A DNA stretch of 64,000 bases from Saccharothrix algeriensis (GTDB lineage Bacteria; Actinomycetota; Actinomycetes; Mycobacteriales; Pseudonocardiaceae). Position numbers and translations under genes: made by a program. The notes beneath the pieces were generated by a model, which was not told the DNA's origin, did not search any database, and was given only the letters and a program-made list of their open reading frames with translations. This document shows positions 23,618-41,554 of the stretch, in pieces. The stretch lies in NCBI RefSeq assembly GCF_016907655.1, contig NZ_JAFBCL010000001.1:62001-126000 (forward strand). Direction: 5' to 3'. Position 1 is the stretch's first letter. Each line of letters starts with the position of its first letter.

Positions 23618-25801
23618 CTACCCCGAGCCCACCGCGTCGAGCCACGCCCGGCGGGCGACGCCGCGGGTGAACTCCCGGACGTGCAGCCCCGCCCGCAGCC
23701 ACGCGACGGGGAACGCGTCCCCCGCGTCGCGCACGATCCGGCCGAACGCGTCGCGCTGCCGGTCGCGGGAGGCGGCGGCCAGGTCGGCGAGCAGTTCGGC
23801 GGTCGCGGTGAGGCCGTTGCCGGTCAGCGCGGACACCTCGCGCGACGCCGACGCGACCGCCGCCACCGCCCGGCCGCCGAGGGTGACGCGGTGCAGGACG
23901 TTCTCCAGCGGGCGCAGCGGCGGCGGGGTCCGGTCGGCGGGCTCCGGGCGCGGCGGCAGGTCGGCGGTGGACCGGCCTTCCACGTGGGACCGCTGCACCC
24001 GGTCCAGGCCCAGGTCGACGTGGTGGCGCAGGTCGGCCGGCAGCGCCAGGTCGCCGGACACCGCGAGCGCGACCGCCGTGCCGGGGCGGTCGGGCGCCAA
24101 CCGGGCCACCACCCGCAGCCGCAGACCTCCGGCGTGCGCCAGGACCCTCAGGTTCTCGCGGGTGCGCTCGCCGTCACCCACCAGGTCGAGCACCACGGCT
24201 CCTCCGGCCCCGGCCGCCGAGCCGGCGGTGGCCGCGCCCGGAGTGGAGCCGGAACCTGAGGCCGCATCCGGGGAAGAACCCGAGCCGGAAGCCGGGTCCC
24301 AGGTGGAGCCGGAACCGGTGGCCGCGTCCGGAGTGGAGCCGAGGCTGGAAGCCGCATCCGGGGAAGTGCCCGAACCGGAAGCCGCGCCCGGGGCGGGGGC
24401 CGTGCCCGTGGCGCGGTCCGGAGCGGTGACGGCCAGGCGGAGGGCGTTGCCCGCCGGGCCCAGCACGACGCCCTCGACGAACAGCAGGTCCGCTCCCGCC
24501 GGGCGGTGGCCGTCCGGGCGGGTGGCCGCCTCGAACGCGCGGGCCACCTGGTCACCCAGGGGCTGCGCCCACAGCCGGGTGAACGGCGGCGCGTCCCAGG
24601 GCGCGCCGGGGGCCGCGACCGCGCGCACCGCCTTGCCCGCCCCGAGCCGGTGGTCGGGCGACGCGGTGCCGCCGGACAGCAGCAGGCCCTCGCGCCCCAG
24701 CCGCCGCTGGGTCAGGCCGGACTCGCCGATCGCCACCGGGCCGTCCGCGACGGCGACGCGCTCCGCCCCTCCGGGCATGATCGCGGGAACGGTCCACAGG
24801 GCGCCCGAGTCGTCCACGAGGTGCGTGACCACGCCGCCGTAGCCGGAGGTGGTGACCACCGGCTCGGTGCACAGGCCGTACAGGCGCAGCGCCCCGACCG
24901 GCCGGTACTCGCGCCGGGCGGTGCCGCGCAACTCGGCGGTGGCGCGGTCGGCGGTGCGCAGGTCGTGGCAGAGCAGGAGGAGGTCGACCAGCTCGGCGGT
25001 GAGCACCTCGCGGTCGAACGTCGAGTCGCCCGCCCGTGCCGCGGCCAGCGCGGCGGCGATGCGCAGCCCGCCCGCCGCCGCCCGGTGCAGGCCGGCCACC
25101 CGCGCGGTGTGCACCGCGCGCAGCAGCTCGGCCCGCACCACCGCCCCGCTGCCGGTGGCCCCGGCGCGGAGGATCGCCGCGCACGCCGTCCAGAGGGCGT
25201 TCGCGGCGGATCGCTCGGCGGCGCGCACCTCGGTGGGCGCGTCGGCCGGCACGAGCCCGCGAGCCCGGTCGGCGGGACCGGCCGCGGGCGCTCCGACAGC
25301 GGGCGAGGTCTCCGGTGAGGTCGCACCCGCAGGCCGCCCGCCCGGAAGGGCGCCGACCGAAGGCGTGTCCGCGGAAGCCCCGACCGGGAGCTGCCCATCC
25401 GAAGAGGCACCGACCAGCGGCGTGTCCACGGAAGCCCCGACCGGTAGCTGCCCATCCGAAGAGGCACCGGCCGAAGGCGTGTCCGGGGGTTGCGCGTCGG
25501 CCTCGGCGGGGAGGGGCGGTTCGGCGACGGGCGCCGCTGCCGCCGCGACGGCCCGGTGCAGGCAGCGCGGCGCGAGCAGGCAGGTGCAGACCAGGTCGTC
25601 GGCCGCGGCCAGCACGCCGCCGCGCAGGGCCCAGGTCAGCGTCGTCTCCGCGTCGAGTTCCGCGCGGGCCGCGTGCGCGTCACCGACGACCTCCCACGTC
25701 CCGGCGCGGTCCAGGGAGGCGTCGGTCCGCTTGCGCAGCCTCGGCGGGAGGGCGTCGAGCACGTCGGCGACCACGGCGGGCGCCACCGGGGGCAGGGTCA
25801 T
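23618..25801 (-). CDS. SWIM zinc-finger protein of DUF4132-MoxR-VWA locus
   Basis: 727 residues. Near residues 72-83, CTCLLAPRCLH gives the CxC...CxH pattern of a SWIM zinc finger, a DNA- or protein-binding module. The remaining sequence is helical and of no recognised fold. Two linker regions consist of in-frame tandem repeats: two copies plus a fragment of a 19-residue unit (SSDGQLPVGASVDTPLVGA) at about 109-146, and five copies of a 10-residue unit (SGSGSTPDAA type) at about 474-523. The ATG overlaps the stop of the DUF5682/VWA gene (ATGA), making it the last gene of the operon. It corresponds in context to E. coli YehQ. Molecular function unknown. Confidence 0.85.
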   Translation of the reverse strand: MTLPPVAPAVVADVLDALPPRLRKRTDASLDRAGTWEVVGDAHAARAELDAETTLTWALRGGVLAAADDLVCTCLLAPRCLHRAVAAAAAPVAEPPLPAEADAQPPDTPSAGASSDGQLPVGASVDTPLVGASSDGQLPVGASADTPSVGALPGGRPAGATSPETSPAVGAPAAGPADRARGLVPADAPTEVRAAERSAANALWTACAAILRAGATGSGAVVRAELLRAVHTARVAGLHRAAAGGLRIAAALAAARAGDSTFDREVLTAELVDLLLLCHDLRTADRATAELRGTARREYRPVGALRLYGLCTEPVVTTSGYGGVVTHLVDDSGALWTVPAIMPGGAERVAVADGPVAIGESGLTQRRLGREGLLLSGGTASPDHRLGAGKAVRAVAAPGAPWDAPPFTRLWAQPLGDQVARAFEAATRPDGHRPAGADLLFVEGVVLGPAGNALRLAVTAPDRATGTAPAPGAASGSGTSPDAASSLGSTPDAATGSGSTWDPASGSGSSPDAASGSGSTPGAATAGSAAGAGGAVVLDLVGDGERTRENLRVLAHAGGLRLRVVARLAPDRPGTAVALAVSGDLALPADLRHHVDLGLDRVQRSHVEGRSTADLPPRPEPADRTPPPLRPLENVLHRVTLGGRAVAAVASASREVSALTGNGLTATAELLADLAAASRDRQRDAFGRIVRDAGDAFPVAWLRAGLHVREFTRGVARRAWLDAVGSG
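24231..24390. repeat. 30-bp in-frame tandem repeat in SWIM gene
   Basis: Five 30-bp units (24231-24260, 24261-24290, 24291-24320, 24321-24350, 24351-24380) and a partial sixth. Units 2 and 5 are nearly identical, as are 1 and 4, so a 90-bp block seems to have duplicated. They encode a flexible Ser/Gly/Pro/Asp linker. Confidence 0.8.
25363..25484. repeat. 57-bp in-frame tandem repeat in SWIM gene
   Basis: Two 57-bp units (25363-25419 and 25420-25476) differ at only a few bases, followed by the first bases of a third. They encode 19 residues each, in the linker behind the SWIM finger. Confidence 0.85.
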
Positions 25802-28800
25802 CCGCGCACCTTCTCCCCCACCCAGCGGGCCAGCTCCTGCGGGCTCAGCGCGGCGACCGGCATCCCGGCCGCCACCAGCGCGCCGGCCACCGACGTCGAG
25901 TACCGCGCCGCGCCGCGGTCGTCCAGGCTCGCGCAGCCCAGCACCGTGACGCCGGAGGTCACCAGTTCGCGCACCTGCCCGACCAGGGACGCCACCGGAC
26001 CGCCCTCCTCGAAGTCGCTGACCAGCACGACCATCGTGCGCTCGGGCACCGCCACCAGGGACCGGGCGTGGCGCAGCGCGCCGGCGATGTGGGTGCCGCC
26101 GCCGACCCGCACCTCCAGCAGCAGCGACAGCGGGTCCGCCACCCGGTCGGTCAGGTCCACCACCTCGGTCGAGAACGCCAGGAAGTGCGTCGACAGCGCC
26201 GGCACGCCGGCGAAGACCGACGCGGTCAGCGCCGCCCAGACGGTGGACGCCTCCATCGAGCCCGACACGTCCACCACCAGCACCAGCCGCCAGTCGGTCG
26301 CCCGGCGGCCCCGCGTCCGGAACACCGGCCGCTCGGGGACGACCAGGACGCGGCCGTCGGCGGTGCGGCGGGCGGTGGCGAGGTTCGCCCGCAGGGTGCG
26401 CGGCAGGTCCAGCCGGCCGCCCGGCCGGCGCGTGGGCGTCGGCAGCTGGAGGCCGGTCAGCGCCGGTCGGACGCGGTTGGCCAGCTGCGCGGCCAGCTCG
26501 CGCACCAGCCGCCCCACCAGTGGGCGCAGCCCCGCCAGCGCGTGCTCCGACAGCCCGCCCGCCAGCGACAGGACGTTGCGCAGCAGCTCGACCGACGGCC
26601 GCACGGCGCCGGGGTCGATCTCCAGCGCGGCCTCCAGCCGCCCACCCTCGACGGCGGCGGCCAGGACCTCTTCCCGGATGTGCTCCCCGAACAGCGCCCG
26701 CAGCTCCTGCGACCACTCGCGCACGTCGGGGAACGGCGACGACAGGTCCGCCCCGAGGCCGCCCGGGTCGCCGGCCGCCGCTCCCTCGCCGCTCTCGCGG
26801 CCGTACAGCTCGTCCAGCGCGGCGGCGTACCGGGCGCCACCCGCCGGCCGCTCGCCCCGCGCGCCGAGCACCAGCCGCCACCGCACGGACGCGGTCAGCG
26901 AGCCCGCCCCCTCGCCGGGGCCGGCCGCGGCCGGCAGCGCTTCCGCGGACCCGGCCGACACCGCTTGCGGCACAACGGGTCGCGCCGCCGTCGGGCGCTC
27001 CTCGGCGGCGGCCCCGAGCGGTTCGCCCGGCGCCGCTCCGTCCGAAGTGGACCCGACCGGCCGGCTCAGGCCGTGCGCGCGCAGGGTTTCCAGGGCGGAC
27101 CGCTCGGCGGCCAGCCACACCGCCAGCAGTTCCGGGTCCGGTGCGCCGGCCGCGTCCACGCGGTCGCCGGTGCGCTGCTCGACCACCACCAGCACCCGCG
27201 CCCGCGCGGCCGGGCCGATCGAGGTGAACGCGCCGCGCAGCGCGGGCAGCCGGTCCAGGAAGTCCCGGTCGGCCAGGCCCTCCACGCGGTCCAGCAGCGG
27301 GGTCAGGGCCTCGGTCGTCTCCAGCAGCGGCGTCGCCGCCGCCAGCACGCCCGTCAGGCCCCCGCGCAGCACCGCCCGCCGGTCCGGGGTGGTCGCGCCG
27401 TCGACCCAGGCCGCGACGCGCTCCCCCAGCGCGCCCGGCGACCCGAGGCCGAGCAGCACCCGCGCCGCGCCGGCCGCGCCCGCGATCAGCGGGGCGCCCT
27501 CGTCGGCGAGCCGGCGCAACGCGGCGGCCAGCCGGACGCCCGTGCCGTGCGCGTCGTGGCGCTGCCCCAGCTCCACCAGCGCCCGCGCGTCCGCCGGGTC
27601 CTCCGAGCCCGCCAGGCCCGCCAGCTGCGCCACCGCCGCCGTCTCCAGTTCCACCGCCAGCAGCGGGTGGTCCGCCAGGACCTCGGGCGGCGTGCCGGGC
27701 ACGTGGCCCGCGCGCACCCGGTCCAGCAGGTCGAGGCCGGCCAGCAGGTCCCGCACCGTCCCCGCGGCCGGCAGCACGGCCCCGGCGTCGGACAGCAGGT
27801 CGCCGACCAGGTCGGGCAGGCCGCACGCCGCCGCGTCGGCCAGGTCCGCCAGGACGCCGGCCGGCGTCTGCCCGCCGGCGCGCTCGCGCTCGGCCCGGCG
27901 CGCGCGCAGGCGCCCGAGCGCGGCCAGCGGCAGCGTCGCGCCCCACAGCCCGGCCACCGGCAGCGTCGCGGCCGTCGCCGGCGTCCACGCCGCGGTCCAG
28001 CGGGTGGTCAGCGCGTCGCCACCGCCGACGCCGGTGGTGGCGGTCTCCTCGCCGTAGGGCACGCCCAGCACGGCCAGCCGCCGCAGGGTCGTCTCGCGGC
28101 GGGCGTCCAGGTCGGACCGCAGCGGGTCCAGGCGCAGCGCGACCGGCTCGCGGGACCCCGGACCGGGCAGGCGCAGCTCGGCGAGCAGCGCCTCCACCGC
28201 CGGGGCCAGGCCGGAGCGGGGCGTGCCGGGCGCCAGGGCGCCCGTGCGGCGGCCCACCAGGACGTCACCGGCCGCGCGGGCGACGACCCGGCCCCGCCCC
28301 AGCGGCTCGGCGTGGGTCAGGACGGTCTGGACGGCTTCGACCACCTCGCCGCGGCCGGGCGCGGGCAGGCCGCGCAGGCGGGCCAGGTCGACGGCCAGCC
28401 GCAGCGCCTCCCGCGCCTCGCCGGGACCGGCGGGGTGGCCCGCCTCCCGCACCCGCGCGCAGATCCGCACGATGACCGACGCGGCGGCGGCCTCCACGGC
28501 GGACGGGTCGCCCGCCGCCTCCAGCACGGCCTGCTGCCACTCCGGGTCGCGGATGCCCGCCGGGTAGCCGGAGCGCTCGTCCAGCAGCGCGAAGCCGTAG
28601 GGCACCAGGGAGGTCACGACCTCCGCGCCGGCGGGCTCGGCGGGCGGCGCGACCGGGCCGCCCAGCAGGGCCGCCGCGTGGAACGAGCCGACCACCGCCG
28701 CGCACCGCCGCCCGCCCGCCTCGGCGACCGCGCGGCGCATCCACCGCTCGCGGCGCAGGTCGAACGGGTCGACCCCGGCGCCGCCCTCGGCGTCGCGGCG

Positions 28801-29718
28801 CAGCGCCCAGCCGACGAGCAGCGCGGCCCGGCGCACCGCCTCGGGGATCTGGCCGGGCGCCGCGGCCTCGACCAGGCGGTCCCACAGGTCGTCGCCGTCG
28901 CGGCCGGTGACCGACCGGCGCAGGGCGTCGGCCAGCGGCGAGGCGGATTCCCCGACCCGGTCGGCGGCGGGGCCGCGGGCGGCCAGCGGCAGGTCGCAGG
29001 GGCGGACCTCCACGCCGTTGCGGTGGGCCCAGCGGATCGCCGCCAGCTCGGGCGAGAAGTCCGCGAACGGGTAGAAGGCGAGCCCGCTCCCGTCGCGCCG
29101 CGCGCCGGACAGCGCGACCGGCGCCGTCAGGCCCGGGTCGGCCAGGTGCGGCAGCCACGCCCCGAGCTCCTCGGGCAGTTCGACCAGCAGCACCTCCGGG
29201 TCGGCCGAGTCGAGCAGGGCGGGCACCACGGCGGCGAGCGCCGGCGAGTGGTGCCGCACCCCGATCAGGAACGGCGCGCGGTGACCGGCCAGCCGCTCGG
29301 CCACCGCGAGGTCGGCCTCGGGCGCGCCGCCGGACCGGGCGGCGGGAGCGAAAGCCGCCCGACCGCCCGACCCACCTGCCGGCGAGGAAGCCGCCGCCGG
29401 CAGGGCACCCCGCAGCCCGGGGTGGGCGGAACCCGCTCCCGGCCGCCCAGCCGACCCGCCGGCCGGCGCGGGAGCCGGCAGCGCACCGCTCGACCCCGCG
29501 GAACCCGCCTCGGCCGCGCCACCCGGCCGAGCGGCACCCACCCCGGCCACCGGCCGAGCGGCACCTGCCCCAGCCACCAGTCGGGCGGCACCTGCCCCAG
29601 CCACCGGCCGGGCGACGCTCGCCCCAGCCACCGGCCGGGCGGCACCCGCCCGAGCCGCCCCTGGGGGACCGCCCGGCCCGTCGGGGGTCGCGCGGCCCCG
29701 ATCAGGCGTCGAGGACAT
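25798..29718 (-). CDS. DUF5682-like protein fused to C-terminal VWA domain
   Basis: 1,306 residues. The first ~145 are low-complexity and include five copies of a 9-residue unit (GAARPVAGA type). A DUF5682-like region follows (APFLIGVRHHSPALAAVVPA, EVLLVELPEELGAWL, AAVVGSFHAAALLG), possibly of TraB/EreA-like fold. From ~1140 is a von Willebrand A domain with a complete MIDAS start (LVLVVDVSGSMEAS) and the later Thr and Asp (GGGTHIAGAL, MVVLVSDFEEGG). In E. coli these parts appear to be separate proteins (YehM and YehP), so this is a fusion. ATG 29718 lies inside the MoxR gene's last 17 bp. VWA-MoxR pairs typically remodel or assemble other proteins in a metal-dependent way. The DUF5682 name rests on remembered motifs. 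Confidence 0.8.
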   Translation of the reverse strand: MSSTPDRGRATPDGPGGPPGAARAGAARPVAGASVARPVAGAGAARLVAGAGAARPVAGVGAARPGGAAEAGSAGSSGALPAPAPAGGSAGRPGAGSAHPGLRGALPAAASSPAGGSGGRAAFAPAARSGGAPEADLAVAERLAGHRAPFLIGVRHHSPALAAVVPALLDSADPEVLLVELPEELGAWLPHLADPGLTAPVALSGARRDGSGLAFYPFADFSPELAAIRWAHRNGVEVRPCDLPLAARGPAADRVGESASPLADALRRSVTGRDGDDLWDRLVEAAAPGQIPEAVRRAALLVGWALRRDAEGGAGVDPFDLRRERWMRRAVAEAGGRRCAAVVGSFHAAALLGGPVAPPAEPAGAEVVTSLVPYGFALLDERSGYPAGIRDPEWQQAVLEAAGDPSAVEAAAASVIVRICARVREAGHPAGPGEAREALRLAVDLARLRGLPAPGRGEVVEAVQTVLTHAEPLGRGRVVARAAGDVLVGRRTGALAPGTPRSGLAPAVEALLAELRLPGPGSREPVALRLDPLRSDLDARRETTLRRLAVLGVPYGEETATTGVGGGDALTTRWTAAWTPATAATLPVAGLWGATLPLAALGRLRARRAERERAGGQTPAGVLADLADAAACGLPDLVGDLLSDAGAVLPAAGTVRDLLAGLDLLDRVRAGHVPGTPPEVLADHPLLAVELETAAVAQLAGLAGSEDPADARALVELGQRHDAHGTGVRLAAALRRLADEGAPLIAGAAGAARVLLGLGSPGALGERVAAWVDGATTPDRRAVLRGGLTGVLAAATPLLETTEALTPLLDRVEGLADRDFLDRLPALRGAFTSIGPAARARVLVVVEQRTGDRVDAAGAPDPELLAVWLAAERSALETLRAHGLSRPVGSTSDGAAPGEPLGAAAEERPTAARPVVPQAVSAGSAEALPAAAGPGEGAGSLTASVRWRLVLGARGERPAGGARYAAALDELYGRESGEGAAAGDPGGLGADLSSPFPDVREWSQELRALFGEHIREEVLAAAVEGGRLEAALEIDPGAVRPSVELLRNVLSLAGGLSEHALAGLRPLVGRLVRELAAQLANRVRPALTGLQLPTPTRRPGGRLDLPRTLRANLATARRTADGRVLVVPERPVFRTRGRRATDWRLVLVVDVSGSMEASTVWAALTASVFAGVPALSTHFLAFSTEVVDLTDRVADPLSLLLEVRVGGGTHIAGALRHARSLVAVPERTMVVLVSDFEEGGPVASLVGQVRELVTSGVTVLGCASLDDRGAARYSTSVAGALVAAGMPVAALSPQELARWVGEKVRG
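29524..29658. repeat. 27-bp in-frame tandem repeat in VWA-fusion gene
   Basis: Five 27-bp units at 29524-29550, 29551-29577, 29578-29604, 29605-29631 and 29632-29658, the middle ones most alike (CGGCACCTGCCCCAGCCAC core). They encode 9 residues each near the protein N-terminus. Confidence 0.8.
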
Positions 29719-30841
29719 CGCGGAGTTCCCAGAGGCGCCGCCAGGTGCGGGCGCCGGTCTCGGCGCGGCGGCGCACCGCGCCGTCCCAGTAGCCGAGCAG
29801 CCGCGCCGCGTCGCCCGGGTCGTCCTTGCGGACCACGCCCAGCAGGTGGCCGGGCAGCAGGGACAGCGGGTCGCGGTCGCCGGGGAAGTACGCGTCGGAC
29901 AGGCCGAGGGCGGTGGCCACCGACACCGCTTCGGCGGTGCTCATCACGGTGGAGGGTCGCTCCACCGACCAGCCCTCCTCCGACACGCCGTTGCGCAGGT
30001 CCCGGAACGCCGTGACCAGCACCTCCAGCACCACGTCGTCCACCGCGAACGGCGCGTTCACCCGGTCCAGCGCCGCCTTGGCCTGCCGGCGCACCAGCGC
30101 CGTCTCCGCCGCCAGGTCGCCGATGGGGCCCACGGCCTCGAAGTTGAAGCGGCGCTTGAGGGCCGCCGACATCTCCGACACGCCCCGGTCGCGCAGGTTC
30201 GCCGTGGCGATCACCGTGAAGCCCGGCGCGGCGTGGACCGTCGCGCCGTCGGCCCCGGACAGCTCCGGCACGGCGATCCGGCGGTCGGACAGGATCGACA
30301 CCAAGGCGTCCTGCACCTCCGGCAGGCAGCGCGTCACCTCCTCGACGCGCACCACGCCGCCGGTGCGCATCGCGGTGAGCACCGGGGACGGGACCAGGGC
30401 CCGGGGGCTGGGGCCCTCCGCCAGCAGCAGCGCGTAGTTCCAGCCGTAGCGCAGCTGGTCCTCGGTGGTGCCGGCGGTGCCCTGCACGACCAGCTGGCTG
30501 GTGCCGCACACGGCGGCGGCGAGCAGCTCGGACAGCATGGACTTCGCCGTGCCCGGTTCACCCACCAGCAGCAGCCCGCGCTCGCCCGCCAGCGTGACGA
30601 CGGCGCGCTCGACCAGCGCCCGCTCCCCCACGAACTTCGGGCTGATCACCATGCGGTTCGGCACGCCCGCCACCGGCTCGGGCAGGGCCAGCGCGTCGCC
30701 GCTGCCGGTGACGAACGCGACGGCGGCGCGCGGGGTGAGCCGCCAGCCGGGCGGGCGGCGGCCGGTGTCGTAGGCCGCCAGGAACGCCAGCTCCTCGGCG
30801 AAGGCGTCCTCGGGCGGGTCGACCTGGCGCGCGGCGGTCAC
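29702..30841 (-). CDS. MoxR-type AAA+ ATPase
   Basis: 379 residues. Walker A is LLLVGEPGTAKSM near 105-115. The Walker B position reads GGVVRVEEV instead of the usual hhhhDE, so the first acidic residue is Glu; hydrolysis may still occur through the E-E pair. Sensor 1 is FTVIATANLRDRG and the arginine finger lies in MSAALKRRFNFEAVG. MoxR ATPases act as chaperones with VWA partners, here encoded immediately downstream. The GTG start overlaps the stop of the 1,602-residue gene (GTGA), and the 3' end overlaps the VWA-fusion start by 17 bp. It corresponds to E. coli YehL in context. Confidence 0.92.
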   Translation of the reverse strand: MTAARQVDPPEDAFAEELAFLAAYDTGRRPPGWRLTPRAAVAFVTGSGDALALPEPVAGVPNRMVISPKFVGERALVERAVVTLAGERGLLLVGEPGTAKSMLSELLAAAVCGTSQLVVQGTAGTTEDQLRYGWNYALLLAEGPSPRALVPSPVLTAMRTGGVVRVEEVTRCLPEVQDALVSILSDRRIAVPELSGADGATVHAAPGFTVIATANLRDRGVSEMSAALKRRFNFEAVGPIGDLAAETALVRRQAKAALDRVNAPFAVDDVVLEVLVTAFRDLRNGVSEEGWSVERPSTVMSTAEAVSVATALGLSDAYFPGDRDPLSLLPGHLLGVVRKDDPGDAARLLGYWDGAVRRRAETGARTWRRLWELRDVLDA

Positions 30842-33800
30842 CGGCGGCCTCCGGTCCTGAGCTCCTCGTAGGCGGGCGCGTCGCCGTCCCGCACGCGCCG
30901 CCAGGCGCGGGCGAACAGGGCGGCGACGGGTTCGCGGGGCGCGATCACCCCGGTCGGGTGGTCGGTGAAGCCGAACATGGGCGCTTTCCAGCTCTCCAGG
31001 GGGACGTGCGGGCTCGCCAGCGGCAGCCAGCCGCCGGGCAGGAACAGCGAGCGGCCGGCGCGGGCGCGCTTCGCGGTGAGGACGAGGTCGGTCTCCGCCA
31101 GCGCGGCGCGCGCCTTGCGCAGGCGGGCGGGCTTCCAGCCCGTCCAGCGGGCGACGTTGGCGTCCGTCGGGTCGGGCAGCGCCAGCAGCTGCAGGTAGAG
31201 CAGGGCCGCGTCCTCGGCCAGGCCGAGCTCCCCGGCGACCTCCGCCACCAGCTGCGCGCCCGGGACCTGGTGGTAAGCCTCCGGGTCGCCGGCCGGGGCC
31301 ACCGCGCACGCCGCGGCGAGGCCCTCGTCGGCGAGGTCGGCCAGCGCCTGCCCCAGCTCCCGGCCGCCGGTCACCTCCACCACCGCCGCCAGCAGTTCCC
31401 GGTCCTCGGGGCCGACCAGGCCGGGGCGCACCGTGACGCGGCAGTACCCGCCGTGCGTCCGGGCGACGTGCAGCCAGTCGCGCGGCTGCACGGCACCGCC
31501 CTCCGCGGGCGGCTCCTGCCCCAGCAGGCCGGCCAGGGAGTCCACCTGCACCCAGCCGCCCAGGTCGACGGCGAAGCCCGGGTGGGCCACGCGCCGCCGG
31601 GCCAGCGCCAGCGACACCGGCAGGGCCGACCGCAGCGGCGAGCCCGCCGGCAGGCGGTAGGCCAGCCACCGCAGCACCCCCGGCACGGCCCGCAGGGTCG
31701 ACCCGCCGAAGCCGTCGGGGTTGCGGGCCCGCAGGGTCGTGCCGTCCAGGCGCTGGTCCGAGTCCTGCGTCAGCCACGCCGTGCGGTCCGGGTCGAGCAC
31801 GCCCGTCACGTACTCGCCGGCCCCGCGCAGCGGCAGCAGCTTCGTCGCGTCCTGCAGCACGTCGTCGGGCACCGGGCGGCGCAGGCCCCGCTCGGCCACC
31901 CACATCTCGGCGACGGCGGCCACGTCCGGCCCCGTCGTCCACAGCTCGGCCGGGTCTTCGGGCACGGCGGCGGCCAGCAGGCGGCGGCGGAACGGGCCGT
32001 CCAGCGGGCGCAGCCGCTCCTTCGCGGTCTTCGCCCCGGCGGCGGACAGGCCCAGCAGGCGGCGTTCGGCGGTGGACAGGTAGTGCGCGTCCCACCGGTC
32101 CACGCCCGCCATGCCCGCCAGCAGCACCGTCGCCTCGGCGGTGCCCAGGCCGGTGCGCTCCACCAGGGCAGGCACCGCCTCGGCGACCCACGGCGCGGGG
32201 CCGCGTTCGGCGAGGGCGGCCAGGAACCGGTCGGCCCGCTCCCGCCCGAACGGCGCGCGCAGCTCGTGCGCGGACACGACGCGCCAGCCGGGCGGCACCT
32301 CGAACGCCCCGGGGGTGCGGGTGAACTGCACGCCCCCGTAGCGGTTCCCCTCCCGGGGCCGCCACTGCTCGTGGGACGCGGCGATGAACCCCTCGCCCAC
32401 CGGCGTCACCCGGTGCAGCGGCGTCGCGGCGCCGTCGGGCACCGTCACGGTGAGGGTGCGCCAGTGGCCGGAGCCCTCGGCCAGGCCGCTGTCGGCCACG
32501 CACCGCAGCACCAGCGCCAGGGCCTCCCGCTCGTCCTGCGGGGTGAGCGGGGACGCCGCGCGGTAGGCCAGCGCGGGCAGGGCGGGCAGCGCCTCGAACC
32601 AGTCGCCGCTGCCCGGCGGGGGCAGCTCCCGGCCCGCCGGCCGCGGTTGCGCCGCGGTCTCCGCCAGGGCGGCGAGCAGGTCGGGCAGCGTGGTCCGGGC
32701 GCCGGCGCGCACGTGCCTGGAGCGACCGCCGCCGAACCACTTCAGCGCCGACTCGACGGTCTGCTCGCCGATCGCGGGCCCGACCGGCGCGAGGGCCACC
32801 GGGCCGACCTCCCGGGCCGCGGCGGCGACGCCGGCGTAGGCGGCGCAGCCGCGCGCCAGCCCGGCCGCGCGGCGCACGAGGTCGACCACGCCCGCCAGCA
32901 GCGCCGGGTGGGTCAGGCCGGGCAGCGCGGCGGCCACCGCGGCGGCCACGTCGTCGCGCTCGCCGCGCACCAGGGCGGCCAGCCGCTCGCGCCGGTCGAG
33001 CCCGTCCCCCTCCGGCGGGACCGCCGCGATCATGGCGTCCACGGCCTCGCGGGTGACGGCGCGCAGCGCCGCCGAGCCCGCCTCGTCCCGGGGTCGCAGC
33101 ACGTGCCACCACGGCACGGCCGGCACCAGCGGCGTGCCGGCGGCGTACTCCGGGCAGCCCTGCTCCGGGGCCACCCGGCCCAGCACGACGCCCCGCGCGT
33201 CCAGCACCGACACCGCGTTGCCCGCCGGCCCCACGGTCAGCCGCGCGCCACCGGGCAGGTCCAGCAGGCCCACCGGGCGCGGGCCGGCGGCCAGCCGCAC
33301 GCGGCGGCCGTCGACGCCCTCGCCCAGCCAGGAGCCGTCGGCCTCGCGGCGCAGCCGCCAGCCGTGCAGGCCGCCGGCCGCGCCCAGGGGGCTGCCCTCG
33401 GTGGCCGCGACCGCCGGCCGCAGGTCGCAGCCGGCCAACTCCAGCTCCGCGCCGTCCGCGGCGAAGTCCTCCAGGAACCCGGGCAGGCTCGCCCGCCCGC
33501 GCTCGCCGGTGGCCGGGTCGACCTCGACCCAGCGCACCGCGCCGTCCACGCGCACCGCCGTCCAGAGCGAGGCGCCGTCGCCGAACGCCGTGCCGGCCGC
33601 GGGCACCTGCGTGTCGCCGGGGCGCACCGCCCGCCGGCCGCCGAAGCGCGCGTCGCCCGCCAGGGCGATCGACGGCAGCGCCGAGTCGGCCTCGCGGTAG
33701 CGCTGCGGCCCGTCGCCGGTCGGGTCGAACACGCGCTCCGGCGCGTCGCTCCAGTAGGCCAGCTCGTGGTCGGGGCCGTCCCAGCGCACCAGGAGCCGGC

Positions 33801-35646
33801 CGGCCACCCACCGCGCCGTCGGCTCGAAGCGCCACCGGTGGCGGGCGTCGGCCGGGATGCGGGCGACGTGCTCGGCGAGCACCCCGTCCGGCCCGACCAC
33901 CACGAACGCCTCGCCGCGCCGCAGCACCAGCGCCGGCCAGCCCTCACCACACACGACGACGCCCTCGCCCTTGGGCGCGGCGCCCGCGGCCAGCCGGACC
34001 ACCGCCTCGTCCAGCGCGGGCCAGCCCAGCTCGTCGAGCAGGCCGGCGCGCAGCGTGGCGCGCAGGGCGGCGGCGACGTCGGTCGCGGCGATCGCCTCGG
34101 CCGCCTCCGGCACGTCCGCGAACGCCTCGGGCAGCCGCAGCAGGGCCAGCTCGTCGAGGTGGGCGGTCAGCTCGGGCAGCCCGGCGGGCGAGCGGTCGGC
34201 GCGCCCGGCGAGCCACCGCCGCAGCGCGACCCGCAGGCCGGGCACGACCAGGACCCCGCTGAGCACGTCGACGCCGACCACCTCGCCGCGGGCCGCGGCG
34301 CGGAGGTGGCCGACCACGCCCGCGCCGAGCGGCCCGCCCAGCAGCTCGGACTCGGCGAGCGCGGCGAGGTCGCGCCGCCCCTCGCCCTCGTCGGCCAGCC
34401 AACCGCCGACGTTGACCACGACCTGCTCGCGCCGGGGCGGCGCCAGCGGCACGCCGCCGGCCACCAGCAGGTCCAGCAGGTCCAGCTCGTCCTGCCGCCA
34501 GTCGCTGAGCACGCGCACCGGCACGCCGTCGGCGGCCAGCCTCGGCGCCATCGCCGCCGCCAGGTCGAGCAGCGTCCGCGACCGCCCCACGCCGCGCCAG
34601 CCGCCGCGGCGGACCGACACGACCGACGACAGCCACTCGGCCGCGTCCGCCGCGCCGCCCGGCTCGACCAGCTCGCGGGTCGCACCGCACGCGCCCAGGA
34701 TCCCGAACCAGGTGTCCAGGGTGGACGCCGCGGCCGGCACGAACGCCAGCAGCCGGGCGCGCACCGCCTCGTCCCGCTTCGCGAGCGCGACCAGCGAGTC
34801 CCGGTAGGACTTCCAGAACGCCGCGCCCGCGTGGCCGATCGACGGGCTGTCCAGCACCGCCCGCAGCAGCCGCTCGTCCTCGGCCGCCGCGTCCCGCCCG
34901 GCCGCCCTCGCCAGCCGCCTCAGGTCCTCCGGCATCCCCGTGTACGGGGGCAGCCCGCCGCGCGTGCGCTCCACGCACAGCGTCACGAACAGCTCGTAGG
35001 CGGCGCCCGGCTCGTGCTTGCGCGCCAGGCCCTTGGCGTGCGCGGACAGCGCCTTCGCGGTCAGCGCGCCGGCGAACGCGAACTCGAGGAACACCTCGCG
35101 GACGCGCTCCGGGTCGACCGCCAGGTCGTGCACCTCCTCCGCCTCGCGCGCCTTGCCGAACATCGACGCGGCGTAGGTGGTGTTGCCGTGCTGCAGGAAG
35201 ATCCGGCCGGCCTGCTCGTAGAAGGTGGGCAGGAAGTGCGGCGCGGAGCGGCCCAGCATCCCGCCCAGGGCGGTGAAGCCGTCCTTCGCCGCGCCGGCCT
35301 TCGACTTGGCGGTGCGGGCCAGCCGCTCGACGTCCTTGACCAGGTTGAGCGCGTGGTGGGCGTTGTCCGGGTCGTTGATCAGCGCCCACGCCGGGAAGCC
35401 GAGGGCGCTGCGCCGCCCGGTGCCCACCGCCGCCACGCGGCCGGGCGCGTCGAACCCGAGGTACTCGCAGGTCAGGTCCTCGGCGCGGCCCAGGACGGCG
35501 GGCGTCAGCCGCACCACCACCCGGTCGCCCAGGGCCGGGTGCGCGTAGCGGCGGGCGGTGACCGCGTCGCGGTCCTGCCCGGTGGGCGCCGCGCCGGGCA
35601 GCACCGCGCCGGCGGCGATCAGGGCCTTCTCGTCGTGCTCGCTCAC
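30838..35646 (-). CDS. Very large protein of unknown family, DUF4132-MoxR-VWA locus
   Basis: 1,602 residues with no domain I can name. The N-terminal ~400 residues are helical and TPR/HEAT-like (YEQAGRIFLQHGNTTYA). The middle (~500-900) is rich in W/G/D strands that suggest a beta-propeller (ELAYWSDAPERVF, LWTAVRVDGAVRWVEVD). The C-terminal third is mixed, with a winged-helix-like segment (WTGWKPARLRKARAALAETD) near 1510. There is no signal peptide or membrane segment, so it is cytoplasmic. GTG 35646 overlaps the DUF4132 stop (GTGA) and its TGA overlaps the MoxR start. Size and position suggest it is the client, scaffold or effector of the MoxR-VWA machine. No WGR motif was seen. Confidence 0.75.
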   Translation of the reverse strand: MSEHDEKALIAAGAVLPGAAPTGQDRDAVTARRYAHPALGDRVVVRLTPAVLGRAEDLTCEYLGFDAPGRVAAVGTGRRSALGFPAWALINDPDNAHHALNLVKDVERLARTAKSKAGAAKDGFTALGGMLGRSAPHFLPTFYEQAGRIFLQHGNTTYAASMFGKAREAEEVHDLAVDPERVREVFLEFAFAGALTAKALSAHAKGLARKHEPGAAYELFVTLCVERTRGGLPPYTGMPEDLRRLARAAGRDAAAEDERLLRAVLDSPSIGHAGAAFWKSYRDSLVALAKRDEAVRARLLAFVPAAASTLDTWFGILGACGATRELVEPGGAADAAEWLSSVVSVRRGGWRGVGRSRTLLDLAAAMAPRLAADGVPVRVLSDWRQDELDLLDLLVAGGVPLAPPRREQVVVNVGGWLADEGEGRRDLAALAESELLGGPLGAGVVGHLRAAARGEVVGVDVLSGVLVVPGLRVALRRWLAGRADRSPAGLPELTAHLDELALLRLPEAFADVPEAAEAIAATDVAAALRATLRAGLLDELGWPALDEAVVRLAAGAAPKGEGVVVCGEGWPALVLRRGEAFVVVGPDGVLAEHVARIPADARHRWRFEPTARWVAGRLLVRWDGPDHELAYWSDAPERVFDPTGDGPQRYREADSALPSIALAGDARFGGRRAVRPGDTQVPAAGTAFGDGASLWTAVRVDGAVRWVEVDPATGERGRASLPGFLEDFAADGAELELAGCDLRPAVAATEGSPLGAAGGLHGWRLRREADGSWLGEGVDGRRVRLAAGPRPVGLLDLPGGARLTVGPAGNAVSVLDARGVVLGRVAPEQGCPEYAAGTPLVPAVPWWHVLRPRDEAGSAALRAVTREAVDAMIAAVPPEGDGLDRRERLAALVRGERDDVAAAVAAALPGLTHPALLAGVVDLVRRAAGLARGCAAYAGVAAAAREVGPVALAPVGPAIGEQTVESALKWFGGGRSRHVRAGARTTLPDLLAALAETAAQPRPAGRELPPPGSGDWFEALPALPALAYRAASPLTPQDEREALALVLRCVADSGLAEGSGHWRTLTVTVPDGAATPLHRVTPVGEGFIAASHEQWRPREGNRYGGVQFTRTPGAFEVPPGWRVVSAHELRAPFGRERADRFLAALAERGPAPWVAEAVPALVERTGLGTAEATVLLAGMAGVDRWDAHYLSTAERRLLGLSAAGAKTAKERLRPLDGPFRRRLLAAAVPEDPAELWTTGPDVAAVAEMWVAERGLRRPVPDDVLQDATKLLPLRGAGEYVTGVLDPDRTAWLTQDSDQRLDGTTLRARNPDGFGGSTLRAVPGVLRWLAYRLPAGSPLRSALPVSLALARRRVAHPGFAVDLGGWVQVDSLAGLLGQEPPAEGGAVQPRDWLHVARTHGGYCRVTVRPGLVGPEDRELLAAVVEVTGGRELGQALADLADEGLAAACAVAPAGDPEAYHQVPGAQLVAEVAGELGLAEDAALLYLQLLALPDPTDANVARWTGWKPARLRKARAALAETDLVLTAKRARAGRSLFLPGGWLPLASPHVPLESWKAPMFGFTDHPTGVIAPREPVAALFARAWRRVRDGDAPAYEELRTGGRR

Positions 35647-36491
35647 CGGGCCACCTCTTCCGCCACGACGCGCCCGGCGTGGATCGCCGAGGCCATGCGC
35701 ATCCCCTCGGACCACGCGACCGGTCCGACGTCGGACAGGGGCAGCGCGGTTCCGTCCTCCAGGGACCAGCGCAACCCGCCGGTCCACGCCTCGCCCTCCG
35801 GGTAGTCCGCGCCGATCCAGTACCGGGCCTCGACCACCCGGCCGCCCTCGAACGCCGAGTACACCGCCTCGCCGCCGCGCACCGGGTAGCCCAGCGAGCG
35901 GCACCGGCCGACCACGTGCGCGACCTCCGCGAACCGGCCGCCGGAGAAGTCCTCCACAGAGGACTTGCCGACCGGGTGCGGCACGCGGGCGAAGGTCTGC
36001 CGGAACAGCTGCTGCACCTTCTGCTCGACCCCCAGCTCCGCGCCGAACTCGCGCAGCTCCGCCAGGTCCTCCAGCAGCACCGGGTGCGGGATGGACACCA
36101 CCTCGGGCCGCAGCCGCACCGTGTCGCCGTCCAGGGTGACCACGCCGAGCCCGCGCCCGGGGTCGGCGTCGCGCAGGAACCCGGCCTCGCCGTCGGCCAC
36201 GACCACCAGGTCGCGCAGGGCGCTCGCCCACGCCTCGTCGGCCCAGACCTCGGTGATCAGCGCGCGCGGCACCGGCAGCGACCGCACCAGCCAGCCGTCC
36301 ACTGCGGACAGGCACTCCGCCTCGTGCCGCGCCAGCCACTCCGAGAGCTGGCGCAGCTGCACCACCCGCGGATCGTCCTTGATGGACGCCGGGACGGCGG
36401 AGAGCACCTTCCCCTTGGCGTTGCGGGCCTGGACGCGCCCACCGTCCCCAAGCCGCACCTGGTACCCGGAAGCGGCGTCCAGCCAGCCCAC
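35643..36491 (-). CDS. DUF4132 domain protein, first gene of MoxR-VWA operon
   Basis: 282 residues. It begins with GYQVRLGDGGRVQARNAKGK and continues with SEWLARHEAECLSAVDGWLV, LPVPRALITEVWADEAW, and VEQKVQQLFRQTFAR, which match what I remember of DUF4132 proteins. In E. coli MolR/YehI the same domain is the C-terminal part of a ~1,200-residue protein; here it stands alone. A strong AGGAGG (about 36496-36501) precedes the GTG start, so this is the operon's first gene. Its stop overlaps the following gene's GTG. The function of DUF4132 is unknown; an early link to molybdate metabolism in E. coli is weak. Confidence 0.75.
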   Translation of the reverse strand: MGWLDAASGYQVRLGDGGRVQARNAKGKVLSAVPASIKDDPRVVQLRQLSEWLARHEAECLSAVDGWLVRSLPVPRALITEVWADEAWASALRDLVVVADGEAGFLRDADPGRGLGVVTLDGDTVRLRPEVVSIPHPVLLEDLAELREFGAELGVEQKVQQLFRQTFARVPHPVGKSSVEDFSGGRFAEVAHVVGRCRSLGYPVRGGEAVYSAFEGGRVVEARYWIGADYPEGEAWTGGLRWSLEDGTALPLSDVGPVAWSEGMRMASAIHAGRVVAEEVAR

Positions 36492-36914
36492 GGTTCCTCC
36501 TGTGAAGTCGATCCCGAACCCGTGGGGCGGAGGTTAACGAGGGGCACCGACAAAAACCGCCCGCGGGCCGTTCCGCAACGGGGCTGTGATGATCCGCGCG
36601 GACCGGACCCCCGGCGCCGCCCGACACCCCGCCCCGGGGAGGAACCGGGGGCGGGGCCGGTCCTGCGCCGAGACGGCCGGCGTCGCGGCCGGTGGCGCCG
36701 AAGCGGCCCGCACCCCCGGGCGGGGTCCGACCGGCGGCGGGGCGCTCCCCGGCGGGGCAGGCCCGAAGTCCGGTCCCGGCGGACGGGCTCCCGGCGGTCG
36801 TACGGTCGAGGTGTCCCCGGTCGGCGGGCCGCACCCCGGTGGGTGTTGCGCCGGACGGCCGAACCGCAACGTACGGTGGACCTCGAGCGTGTCCACCGTG
36901 GCAGGGAGAGTCGC
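36492..36914. other. Divergent promoter region of DUF4132 operon and SIP gene
   Basis: About 420 bp with no gene. Near 36530-36560 is a short AT-richer stretch (GTTAAC, then CAAAAACC) where the operon promoter probably lies; TAACCT on the minus strand could be a -10. On the right side, ACGGTGGAC-N9-GTCCACCGT (36873-36899) is an inverted repeat just upstream of the SIP gene RBS. No Fur/DmdR-type iron box was recognised. Confidence 0.5.
36873..36899. promoter_or_regulatory. Inverted repeat upstream of siderophore-interacting protein gene
   Basis: ACGGTGGAC (36873-36881) is the exact reverse complement of GTCCACCGT (36891-36899), with 9 nt between, ending 15 bp before the start codon. Such a site could be an operator or a leader hairpin that affects translation. 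The GTGGAC/GTCCAC arms resemble the palindromes at 14322 and 62242. Confidence 0.45.
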
Positions 36915-41000: not shown

Positions 41001-41554
41001 TGGCCGCGGACCTGGACCACCGCGTGCGCTGGCGGCACCTCCGGCCGCGGCGCGGCGCGGGCCGCCTGCTGTGGCTGTGCGAGCAGATGGCGACCCGGCA
41101 GCGCGCCCACGACCTGGTGCCGGAGATGTGGCGCTCGGCGCTGGCGCGCGGCGTGCGCTCCCCCGACTGGCCGCCGGGCCGCCCGCCCGCCGAGTGCGGG
41201 CTCGACCAGGCCGGCTACACCGCCCTGCTGCGCGAACGCGCCACCACCGCCGCCCTGGCGGTGCACGAGGACCACGCGACCGTCGCGGGCACGGTGGCGG
41301 CGTCGGCCGTCACGTGGCACGGCAAGCACCACAGCCCGCCGACCCCGACCCGGGCGGCGACCGAGGTGCCCTTCCCCGACGCCCCCGACGAGCCGGACAC
41401 CGCGGACCGGGGCGTGGCGGTGTTCACCCGGCGCGGCGACTACCGCGCCACGGGCTGGCTGTCGGCCTACGACGCGCTGGCCGACGACGCCGAACCTCCG
41501 CCGCCCGCGCCCGCCCGCCGCGGCCTGGGCGCCGTGCGCGCCCCGCGAGCCTGA
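38009..41554 (+). CDS. Ski2-like superfamily 2 helicase with N-terminal zinc ribbon
   Basis: 1,181 residues. GTG 38009 follows GGGGGAGG. CPRC (~46) and CPGC (~75) form a zinc ribbon, followed by ~110 residues of Ala/Pro/Gly/Thr linker. The helicase core has motif I APTGAGKT (~424), motif II VVDEIHLL (~522, DEIH), motif III GLSATVSN (~556), motif IV-V VATSTVAAGVNLPARA and motif VI QMFGRAGRIG (~729). About 300 helical residues follow, as in Hel308/Ski2 proteins. It should unwind DNA or RNA 3' to 5' using ATP. The next gene is 38 bp downstream in the same direction. Helicases of this plan with an unknown partner are candidates for repair or defence. Confidence 0.88.
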   Translation: MVRGSSDVDTSVAGVVEARWGVRPEPAIARYAEPGWQWSPIPVEKRCPRCAGGLHGLYRAHPHRGKQQLQAAVVCPGCPASFTLRELQLSQRSVLGELRPEAVARRAAEDAQLAALAREARAHHEEVPGPPAATDPATATGPTSAAGPTGATGRPKRERRPGRRPGPPAGTGLVEAEDPAGPARPTGLPAGAGPAEPADLPGPPAPDDPLDSPGPPGEPRPARAARRMSTTVMAARIRSVLAGSEAVPTAQDDVPALPPALVDAAGAGPVWWCKTTDPTLKPPAGVTDGRVLMPDRPEFDDLRELLTREGVAHRSVRHWLEQETVSSLTGPLRATAWLSEVGGVVPEPCEPVGEDGALAARLAFDLLWDLHEPAPAAPPDPAPADRLVPPRWLPYLPFPLLNPAQAQAAPHIVDEDSHLLITAPTGAGKTAIGMMAVLKAILEEGRKAAWLVPQRSLTDELDRELETWRARGLRVERLSGEYAVDVERVRAADLWVATTEKFEAICRAASLQAALGEVGCLVVDEIHLLGTPGRGALLEALLARVRGADSPVRIVGLSATVSNAAEVAEWLEAELVATSWRPSRVTWQLPTVPAASGYAANARLREQVVVDLTARHTAERGSVLVFCGSKRNVRSTAMAIAADRGAPVHTVASDDVDGLTQVCAEVGVRLHYADYEHKHAAERAFRERRADVLVATSTVAAGVNLPARAVIVRDTAVGGEAMDTSMVLQMFGRAGRIGAGETEGWSYLVVDEHQRAAWQTRLVAGYSVYSRIHESLPDHVLAEVLQGRITCLADAEAWWVETLAHAQGDDALQPVQDAVSFLVDEGHLAARPDGALAITELGRLTARMMVSTHAGHRLRYALRLLPPPPDPDAAEDALTLVLSVAVRDLAAIPVPDQVRPAVATAVKAGGRASRITHTASVKGLGSQTTTAPGDLARAALLLAARSPHLFAPGRTRRRVAAGIPLTTLHPVFDQAPRYLAWLAAQGALGTVHPWIAVVAADLDHRVRWRHLRPRRGAGRLLWLCEQMATRQRAHDLVPEMWRSALARGVRSPDWPPGRPPAECGLDQAGYTALLRERATTAALAVHEDHATVAGTVAASAVTWHGKHHSPPTPTRAATEVPFPDAPDEPDTADRGVAVFTRRGDYRATGWLSAYDALADDAEPPPPAPARRGLGAVRAPRA

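What the first reader, a model, noticed from the sequence alone, without database searches (positions are those of the whole stretch)
23618..36491. Five-gene, fully overlapping DUF4132 - giant unknown - MoxR - DUF5682/VWA - SWIM operon
Seen: every junction overlaps (GTGA at 35643-35646, GTGA at 30838-30841, 17 bp at 29702-29718, ATGA at 25798-25801), so five proteins totalling about 4,300 residues are made in fixed order. Known: MoxR ATPases with VWA partners act as protein-remodelling chaperones; E. coli has an uncharacterised locus yehI-yehL-yehM-yehP-yehQ with DUF4132, MoxR, VWA and SWIM proteins. Inference: this is an actinobacterial version, with DUF4132 split off as a small protein, YehM and YehP fused, and a 1,602-residue protein of no recognised family added. 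The MoxR has an unusual Walker B (VEE). The set could be a conflict/defence or protein quality-control system. It is the best candidate here for an undescribed system.
Basis: partly seen in the sequence, partly recalled or inferred. Interest (0 to 1): 0.85.

Follow-up and report, generated by a model that had tools for sequence, protein, structure and literature searches.

The report
DNA-damage-controlled MoxR-VWA five-gene operon
Five tightly packed genes of unknown function, related to a little-studied E. coli locus, sit behind the promoter signal that actinobacteria use to switch on DNA repair genes, which suggests that this protein-remodelling machine is part of the response to DNA damage.

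Summary
Five overlapping genes (window 23618-36491, minus strand; 4,296 residues) encode DUF4132, a 1,602-aa protein without a family, MoxR, DUF5682+VWA and a SWIM-motif protein. All five lie in the same order in 63 of 80 actinobacterial loci; only these five families are widely shared there. The E. coli yehI/L/M/P/Q comparison holds.

The interpretation needs revision. The operon starts 39 nt after a perfect RecA-NDp site (TTGTCRGTG-N8-TAnnnT), the motif through which PafBC controls LexA-independent DNA-damage genes. Only 11 such sites exist in the 6.9-Mb genome (reversed pattern 0); others precede uvrA, uvrC, ligA, the proteasomal ATPase and the genome's second YehL-type cluster. Of 42 strict sites in the 80 loci, 41 lie just before the DUF4132 gene. 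Three other YehL-type lineages carry it too, though none of 5 clusters in three other genomes of the order does.

Best reading: a DNA-damage-inducible AAA+/VWA remodelling system. Damage control is strongly supported by sequence but not measured; substrate and outcome are unknown. No defence-library match was found. The giant protein carries a predicted beta-propeller.

The parts
36531..36553 (-). RecA-NDp / PafBC-type promoter site TTGTCGGTG-CCCCTCGT-TAACCT, 39 nt before the GTG start of the first gene
   Evidence: consensus as quoted in PMC5656591
35643..36491 (-). Gene 1 (P0001, 282 aa): DUF4132 module alone, equivalent to the C-terminal part of E. coli YehI
   Evidence: Pfam PF13569 3e-26; hhalign to YehI family 97.5%
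30838..35646 (-). Gene 2 (P0002, 1602 aa): giant protein without a family; N-terminal part helical by eye (not folded), predicted beta-propeller in the middle, strongly conserved C-terminus
33169..33963 (-). Predicted beta-propeller-like region of P0002 (residues ~562-826)
   Evidence: AlphaFold2 model of residues 440-1602, mean pLDDT 85; Foldseek top matches are mostly propellers but none has E<=0.001
29702..30841 (-). Gene 3 (P0003, 379 aa): MoxR AAA+ ATPase of the YehL type; Walker A GEPGTAKS, Walker B VVRVEEV
25798..29718 (-). Gene 4 (P0004, 1306 aa): DUF5682 (YehM-like) fused to a CoxE-type VWA domain (YehP-like) with a DVSGS MIDAS motif
25819..26484 (-). VWA_CoxE domain of P0004 (residues 1079-1300)
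23618..25801 (-). Gene 5 (P0005, 727 aa): SWIM-motif protein
25556..25588 (-). CxC-x5-CxH SWIM-type zinc motif of P0005 (residues 72-82)
   Evidence: pattern kept in 67 of 68 ORFs

Best explanation
The five genes form one operon of the RecA-independent (PafBC) DNA-damage regulon of actinobacteria. It encodes an AAA+ remodelling machine: the YehL-type MoxR ATPase is the motor, the CoxE-type VWA domain (fused to DUF5682) the MIDAS adaptor that grips the substrate, the giant propeller-bearing protein with the DUF4132 protein the scaffold or recognition module, and the SWIM protein a zinc adaptor that may contact DNA or a DNA-bound partner. When DNA is damaged, activated PafBC would switch on transcription from the TTGTCGGTG-N8-TAACCT site and the complex would remodel or remove a protein target connected with the lesion. 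Shown here: gene content, order, conservation, promoter site, presence of PafBC in the genome, the same site before paralogous clusters. Inferred: induction by damage, complex formation, the role of each part, the substrate.
For: (1) Strict site 39 nt before gene 1; 11 sites in the whole genome, reversed control 0. (2) The other sites precede uvrA, uvrC, ligA, the proteasomal ATPase, a WGR protein, a YjbR protein, VOC-YaaA, an alpha/beta-hydrolase-like gene and the second YehL-type cluster; one has no called gene. (3) In 80 loci 41 of 42 strict sites sit just before gene 1; control pattern 1. (4) Best match in the 160 nt upstream: 62 of 72 gene-1 regions reach >=10 of 12 positions and 42 of 72 reach 12; of 691 other genes in the same loci none reach 12 and 13 reach >=10, 5 of these 13 being gene 2 in loci where gene 1 was not found. 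(5) E. coli-type WGR-DUF4132 cluster, type-2 and type-4 clusters and DUF4132 operons without MoxR nearby carry strict sites in presumed Streptomyces genomes. (6) Over 11 genomes, 16 of 22 DUF5682 clusters have a strict site at their first gene or divergent promoter: own 2 of 2, presumed Streptomyces 14 of 15 (the fifteenth has 11 of 12 positions), three other genomes of the order 0 of 5. (7) PafC (PF19187) and a WYL-WCX partner lie near pafA in this genome. (8) Elsewhere: DUF4132 protein DRA0166 of Deinococcus is in the DdrO regulon and rises after mitomycin C (PMC8533742, passages); molR of E. coli is listed as LexA-regulated (PMC11039860, PMC4576408, one passage each; that molR = yehF-yehI is recalled). 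(9) YehL/YehM/YehP-like gene content.
Against: No expression data; a promoter consensus is not proof of regulation, and ClgR has also been reported to recognise this promoter (PMC5656591, passage). None of the 5 DUF5682 clusters in G035, G037 and G088 has a strict site, and G037 has none in the whole genome; the type-1 operons of G035 and G037 have a 9-of-12 site 30-35 nt before gene 1, and their type-4 clusters and the G088 cluster have no convincing site. Four Dactylosporangium loci reach only 8 of 12 positions and L118 7. PMC9380542 states that an initial search suggested the M. smegmatis PafBC motif is not conserved in S. venezuelae (passage). Loci are related, so counts are not independent events. 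Nothing here shows that the five proteins bind each other or act on DNA-bound substrates.
Confidence: 0.62

Rival explanations
1. A conflict or cell-death system: a MoxR-VWA module like those of Kaur et al. 2020 that reacts to phage or severe damage and stops growth or kills the cell; the damage promoter merely arms it.
For: Architectural parallel to MoxR-vWA systems, including the GXXXTAKS P-loop and a separate propeller-bearing component (PMC7159879 passages). Five-gene unit without fixed neighbours.
Against: No PADLOC family for any of the five proteins beyond one chance-level hit; no recognisable effector domain by Pfam; DUF5682 match in this cluster's score band in 23 of 24 genus genomes, not the patchy pattern usual for defence genes; one phage record with a MoxR relative.
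Confidence: 0.2
2. General chaperone or assembly factor for a metalloenzyme or other complex (like RavA-ViaA, NorQ-NorD or CoxD-CoxE), with no special role in DNA repair; DNA damage is only one inducer.
For: MoxR proteins of known function are maturation factors (PMC3893208 passages); the VWA is CoxE-type.
Against: No further gene family is widely conserved beside the operon; the promoter is shared with repair genes and recurs in several cluster types.
Confidence: 0.13
3. Molybdate metabolism (the old MolR reading of YehI).
For: Historical name molR for the E. coli WGR/DUF4132 genes (PMC8533742 passage; identity with yehF-yehI recalled).
Against: In D. radiodurans moeA and moeB were not differentially expressed with these genes (PMC8533742); no further gene family is widely conserved in the neighbourhood.
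Confidence: 0.02
4. The site is an ordinary promoter element by coincidence and the operon is not damage-regulated.
For: No expression measurement was available; 5 clusters in three other genomes of the order lack a strict site.
Against: Genome-wide rarity and gene content of the sites, position conservation, recurrence in paralogous lineages.
Confidence: 0.03

Closest known systems
E. coli yehI-yehK-yehL-yehM-yehP-yehQ locus (YehL subfamily of MoxR ATPases)
   Same: Same families in the same order: DUF4132, MoxR, DUF5682, VWA_CoxE, SWIM; YehL 47% identical to P0003; YehM and YehP line up along P0004.
   Different: DUF4132 is a stand-alone 282-aa protein instead of the C-terminal part of a 1,210-aa one; YehM and YehP are fused; the 1,602-aa protein has no counterpart in that locus (hhalign to YehI not significant); P0005 shares only the SWIM motif with YehQ.
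MoxR-vWA ternary systems, beta-propeller subsystem (Kaur et al. 2020, PMC7159879)
   Same: MoxR plus vWA core; GXXXTAKS P-loop; a further component with a predicted beta-propeller.
   Different: [quoted passage not shown] MoxR scores below the bpMoxR cut-off (21.4 vs 27); the paper's main text contains none of SWIM, Yeh, DUF5682 or WGR.
Second YehL-type cluster of the same genome (L015 5107-13107): SWIM - DUF5691 - MoxR - DUF5682 - VWA
   Same: MoxR 49% identical, DUF5682 and VWA relatives, strict RecA-NDp site before the first gene.
   Different: DUF5691 instead of DUF4132 and the giant protein; DUF5682 and VWA not fused.
PafBC (RecA-NDp) DNA-damage regulon of mycobacteria
   Same: Same promoter consensus and presence of PafBC.
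   Different: The passages seen in three papers name no SWIM or DUF4132 protein; PMC5656591 lists MoxR1, MoxR2 and a von Willebrand protein as lower in a pafBC deletion, which I did not compare with this cluster (supplements not read).

Membership tests
YehL subfamily of MoxR AAA+ ATPases | MoxR sequence closer to YehL than to other MoxR | tested here: met
   47-48% over 367 aa to YehL, 23% over 152 aa to RavA; only these two E. coli MoxR proteins compared
YehL subfamily of MoxR AAA+ ATPases | Gene neighbourhood with DUF5682, CoxE-type VWA, DUF4132 and SWIM | tested here: met
   SWIM by motif only
[quoted passage not shown]
   VWA reaches residue 1300 of 1306 in P0004
MoxR-vWA beta-propeller ternary system (Kaur 2020) | MoxR in the bpMoxR family | tested here: not met
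   PF20030 21.4 bits, cut-off 27
MoxR-vWA beta-propeller ternary system (Kaur 2020) | Third component with TPR and beta-propeller | tested here: inconclusive
   Propeller predicted in P0002; N-terminal part not folded
PafBC regulon | RecA-NDp site tTGTCRgtg-N8-TAnnnT before the operon | tested here: met
PafBC regulon | PafB and PafC encoded in the genome | tested here: met
   HTH_PafC + WYL + WCX, and WYL + WCX, near pafA
PafBC regulon | PafBC-dependent induction by DNA damage | not testable with these tools
   needs expression data
LexA (SOS) regulon | SOS box upstream | tested here: not met
   No exact GAAC-N4-GTTC or CGAAC-N4/5-GTTCG in the 350 nt upstream of gene 1 in 72 regions; degenerate boxes not tested
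Known anti-phage defence systems (PADLOC 2023) | Profile match of component proteins | tested here: not met
   Only one chance-level hit (E 0.021, P0003) among five proteins
SWIM zinc finger (P0005) | Pfam SWIM above cut-off | tested here: not met
   no Pfam family at E<=1
SWIM zinc finger (P0005) | CxC-xn-CxH pattern | tested here: met
   67 of 68 ORFs
TraB/TIKI/EreA-like hydrolase (DUF5682 N-terminal domain) | Two GxxH-type motifs and an intervening E at strand ends | tested here: inconclusive
   HH[SG]P, E and VxGxxH kept in 10 aligned DUF5682 proteins of four cluster types; hhalign to Erythro_esteras and to YbaP not significant; Foldseek listed no such fold; motif lore recalled

The most novel reading that the evidence does not exclude
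YehL-type clusters are a widespread bacterial counterpart of the p97-plus-protease machines that clear proteins from damaged chromatin: induced by DNA damage, a MoxR/VWA motor pulls blocked or crosslinked proteins off DNA, DUF4132/WGR, propeller and SWIM parts find the lesion, and the DUF5682 N-terminal domain (TraB/TIKI-like GxxH-E-GxxH motifs) is a metal-dependent hydrolase that cuts them. E. coli, Deinococcus and actinobacteria would have wired related genes to LexA, DdrO and PafBC independently.
Probability: 0.12. Interest if true: 0.95.

Novelty: new variant of a known kind. Interest (0 to 1): 0.76.

Why it matters
MoxR-VWA machines are widespread in bacteria, and I found no assigned role for the YehL group, including its E. 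coli namesake, in the papers searched. Tying families of unknown function (DUF4132, DUF5682, DUF5691, the giant protein, the SWIM proteins) to the DNA-damage regulon turns an unlabelled locus into one with a direct test: mitomycin C induction and genotoxin sensitivity. It also suggests that the PafBC motif is in use in Streptomyces, against a published remark, and that LexA, DdrO and PafBC may have recruited related genes independently.

Tried and rejected
Considered and rejected: a plain LexA-box explanation (no exact SOS box); P0002 as a split-off N-terminal half of YehI (hhalign 0.1%); P0002 relatives among solved structures by sequence (0 matches); DUF5682 relatives among solved structures by sequence (0 matches); DUF5682 as a proven TraB/erythromycin-esterase relative (not significant; TraB family absent from 60 related genomes; whole-model Foldseek gave mostly helical-repeat matches, none with E<=0.001, and one 7w5z chain with probability 1.00 but E 0.025 that I could not identify); mobile or phage origin (11 plasmid-collection records of 0.37-11.9 Mb with a P0002 relative, 5 of them over most of its length; 1 phage record with a P0003 relative). 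The first version of the control still contained gene-1 starts; it was corrected and only the corrected numbers are used. Two stretches (L157, L160) were given in the wrong numbering and do not count; the right ones were scanned (no family at E<=0.01).
Full report
WHAT IS THERE. The window is part of a one-contig 6.88-Mb genome (window = G000:C1:62001-126000). The five ORFs, their lengths and their overlaps are as reported. Pfam places P0001 in DUF4132, P0003 in AAA_5 and P0004 in DUF5682 plus VWA_CoxE; P0002 and P0005 match nothing at E<=1. NCBIfam and PADLOC add nothing specific. P0005 has the SWIM pattern CxC-x5-CxH; 67 of 68 homologous ORFs have CxC-x4-6-CxH. The VWA keeps a DVSGS MIDAS motif.

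CONSERVATION. In these 80 loci, profile searches find all five families in 63, always in the order 1-2-3-4-5 (62, where one ORF of L064 reads across two genes). Of the other 17, six lack only gene 5 and end early (7.9-15.7 kb held), L088, L122 and L136 are short pieces too, L066, L069 and L077 lack gene 1, L078, L083 and L085 hold only genes 1 and 2, and L084 and L117 only gene 2. L106 is split by frame breaks. By record title the loci come from Saccharothrix, Actinokineospora, Umezawaea and relatives, Dactylosporangium, Streptomyces, Kitasatospora, Embleya, Nonomuraea and relatives and Catenulispora. No other gene family is shared by more than 8 loci in the flanks: the unit is exactly five genes. 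In the broader sample, DUF5682 occurs in 28 of 40 relatives and in 17 of 198 genomes of the phylum.

KINSHIP. P0003 is 47% identical to E. coli YehL and 23% to RavA over a short stretch. P0004 lines up with YehM (26%) and then YehP (38%). P0001 matches the C-terminal DUF4132 module of the YehI family (hhalign 97.5%), while P0002 does not match YehI and P0005 does not match YehQ beyond the SWIM motif. The Walker B with E in place of D recurs in the clade: IVRFEEI in YehL, ARVEEL in the second own copy, RTEEL in type 4, but FLDEI in RavA, so it is not peculiar to this window. The own genome carries a second YehL-type cluster (type 2): SWIM, DUF5691, MoxR, DUF5682, VWA (L015). Genomes of genus g20, unnamed but nearest by DNA to named Streptomyces loci, carry in addition an E. 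coli-type WGR-DUF4132 cluster (L155), type-2 clusters with divergent SWIM-DUF5691 genes (L215-L217, L244-L247; Pfam checked for L216) and a type 4 with a first gene of no family, VWA_CoxE, MoxR and DUF5682 (L162, L163).

THE PROMOTER. A scan of the upstream regions for damage-response motifs chosen beforehand found no exact SOS box but a loose form of the RecA-NDp motif in 55 of 72 regions (54 of 71 loci plus the window). The consensus tTGTCRgtg-8 nt-TAnnnT is quoted in PMC5656591 (passages), and PafBC acts through it (PMC6789036, passages). The window site TTGTCGGTG-CCCCTCGT-TAACCT lies at 36531-36553, 39 nt before the GTG start, with AGGAGG between.

CONTROLS. (a) The strict pattern occurs 11 times in the own genome, its reversed form 0 times. 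Downstream genes: this operon; the second YehL-type cluster (8 nt before its SWIM gene); proteasomal ATPase (TIGR03689, over cut-off); uvrA; uvrC; ligA; a WGR protein with propeller repeats; a YjbR protein; a VOC protein followed by yaaA; an alpha/beta-hydrolase-like gene (by eye); one site without a called gene. (b) In the 80 loci (1.52 Mb) there are 42 strict sites, 41 of them just before gene 1, and 1 reversed match. (c) Counting matches at the 12 specified positions in the 160 nt upstream: 72 gene-1 regions give 42 at 12, 8 at 11, 12 at 10, 5 at 9, 4 at 8, 1 at 7; 691 other genes of the same loci give 0 at 12, 6 at 11, 7 at 10, and 5 of these 13 are gene 2 in loci where gene 1 was not found (L066, L069, L077, L084, L117). 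Regions in which gene 1 was not matched from its first residues were not in the 72. (e) In an S. atratus linear plasmid not used before, the best site of 24.9 kb is 11 of 12, 84 nt before the DUF4132 gene. (f) In 10 other genomes the strict pattern occurs 0-40 times and the reversed pattern 0-1 times; of 30 such sites looked at, downstream genes recognised by eye include ung, rpsF, a UvrD-type helicase, ruvC, xseA, uvrB, polA, recA, YjbR, a SWIM gene and this operon, while 5 had no called gene and several had genes of no evident repair role.

RECURRENCE AND ITS LIMITS. Strict sites precede the E. coli-type cluster (site 5939, WGR-DUF4132 gene 6017 in L155), two DUF4132 operons without MoxR nearby (L157, L160), type 4 (L162, L163) and the SWIM-DUF5691 genes of type 2 (L215-L217, L244-L247); in L244-L247 a second site with 11 of 12 positions points the other way, towards MoxR. 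Counting every DUF5682 cluster in the own genome and the ten genomes: own 2 of 2 with a strict site; seven presumed Streptomyces 14 of 15, the exception (G062 type 1, L161) having 11 of 12 positions 37 nt before gene 1; G035, G037 and G088, other families of the order, 0 of 5. Together 16 of 22. G037 has no strict site in its whole genome; the type-1 operons of G035 and G037 have 9-of-12 sites in the usual place. So the link is strong in Saccharothrix and Streptomyces, weaker or diverged elsewhere. Outside actinobacteria, the DUF4132 protein DRA0166 is in the DdrO regulon of D. radiodurans and accumulates after mitomycin C (PMC8533742, passages), and molR is listed among LexA-regulated genes of E. 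coli (PMC11039860 and PMC4576408, one passage each). That molR is the yehF-yehI region is recalled. A LexA-like box (13 of 20 positions, equal best of its 35-kb region under the CTG-N10-CAG filter) begins 27 nt before the yehF start.

PAFBC IS PRESENT. Near pafA (TIGR03686) the genome encodes a protein with HTH_PafC, WYL and WCX domains and a second one with WYL and WCX. The published S. venezuelae study says that an initial motif search suggested the M. smegmatis PafBC motif is not conserved there (PMC9380542, passage); the seven presumed Streptomyces genomes here have 10-40 strict sites each, which argues that the motif is in use in the genus. S. venezuelae itself was not searched.

STRUCTURE. 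P0002 residues 440-1602 were predicted with mean pLDDT 85: residues ~562-826 form about five groups of four strands, and the best Foldseek matches are mostly beta-propellers, though the best E is only 0.01. The N-terminal 439 residues were not folded. P0004 residues 135-905 (mean pLDDT 82.6) give an alpha/beta N-terminal domain followed by helical repeats; Foldseek gives only weak, mostly helical matches. In 10 aligned DUF5682 proteins the N-terminal domain keeps HH[SG]P, an E at the end of the next strand, and VxGxxH. This resembles the TraB/TIKI/EreA pattern (recalled; visible in YbaP), but profile comparisons are not significant, so I treat hydrolase activity as a lead only. The one annotated full-length relative looked at is labelled 'DNA-binding protein'; the basis of that label is unknown.

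MECHANISM. Most likely, DNA damage activates PafBC, which directs RNA polymerase to this promoter; the MoxR ring, coupled through the VWA-DUF5682 protein, remodels a target chosen by the propeller protein, DUF4132 and the SWIM protein. Shown: genes, order, promoter site, PafBC genes. Inferred: everything from induction onward. Known analogies: RavA-ViaA and other MoxR proteins as maturation factors (PMC3893208, passages) and the MoxR-vWA ternary systems (PMC7159879, passages), of which this is not a member by two defining features tested (no propeller after the vWA, bpMoxR below cut-off).

IN PRINT? DUF4132 appears in 3 papers of the library, DUF5682 and DUF5691 in none. Of 5 papers with at least two of PafBC, SWIM zinc finger, MoxR, WGR, DUF4132 and DUF5682, two join PafBC with MoxR: PMC5656591, where MoxR1 and MoxR2 stand in a proteome table, and PMC6882752, a meeting report not opened. 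Four papers mention YehL with MoxR; the one seen in passages gives no function for YehL. Three papers name two or more yeh genes of this locus (listing only). Supplements were not readable, so a listing in a supplementary table cannot be excluded.

VERDICT. The system is a new variant of the MoxR-VWA kind, with an unusually direct regulatory clue that makes it testable.

Noticed in passing
G000:C1:3209000-3228000 (L015 5107-13107): Second YehL-type cluster of the same genome (SWIM - DUF5691 - MoxR - DUF5682 - VWA), also with a strict RecA-NDp site 8 nt before its first gene.
   Followed up: yes
L078, L083, L085 and L066, L069, L077; L016, L017, L027: In three Actinokineospora species a P0001+P0002 pair stands alone while the other cluster of the same species starts with P0002 and lacks P0001; P0002 also occurs in tandem copies in some relatives. 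The pair may be a module of its own.
   Followed up: partly
L066, L069, L077, L084, L117: Where gene 1 was not found, a 10-11 of 12 RecA-NDp site stands before P0002 instead, so the site stays with the first gene.
   Followed up: partly
L244-L247 (type-2 clusters): Two opposed RecA-NDp-like sites lie between the SWIM and MoxR genes: a strict one towards SWIM-DUF5691 and one with 11 of 12 positions towards MoxR.
   Followed up: partly
window 36554-36600 (minus strand), L062, L063: A conserved stretch around GTTGCGRAAC lies about 20-30 nt upstream of the promoter site (by eye); it may bind a second regulator.
   Followed up: no
L174 (G000:C1:6307657-6307679): A 474-aa WGR protein with PQQ-type propeller repeats has its own strict RecA-NDp site; it could be the missing WGR partner of the stand-alone DUF4132.
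   Followed up: partly
L157 5704-6090 and L160 5608-6000, minus strand: A similar 128-130-aa protein without a Pfam match precedes DUF4132 genes that have no MoxR nearby, under a strict site.
   Followed up: partly
L178-L205 (other genomes): Many strict RecA-NDp sites before repair genes in presumed Streptomyces, against the remark in PMC9380542 that the motif seems not conserved in S. venezuelae.
   Followed up: partly
window 29518-29656, 25345-25484, 24228-24423: Tandem repeats of 27, 57 and 90 bp give low-complexity linkers in P0004 and P0005.
   Followed up: partly
window 38009-41554: A 1,181-aa called gene near the divergent neighbour; not examined.
   Followed up: no
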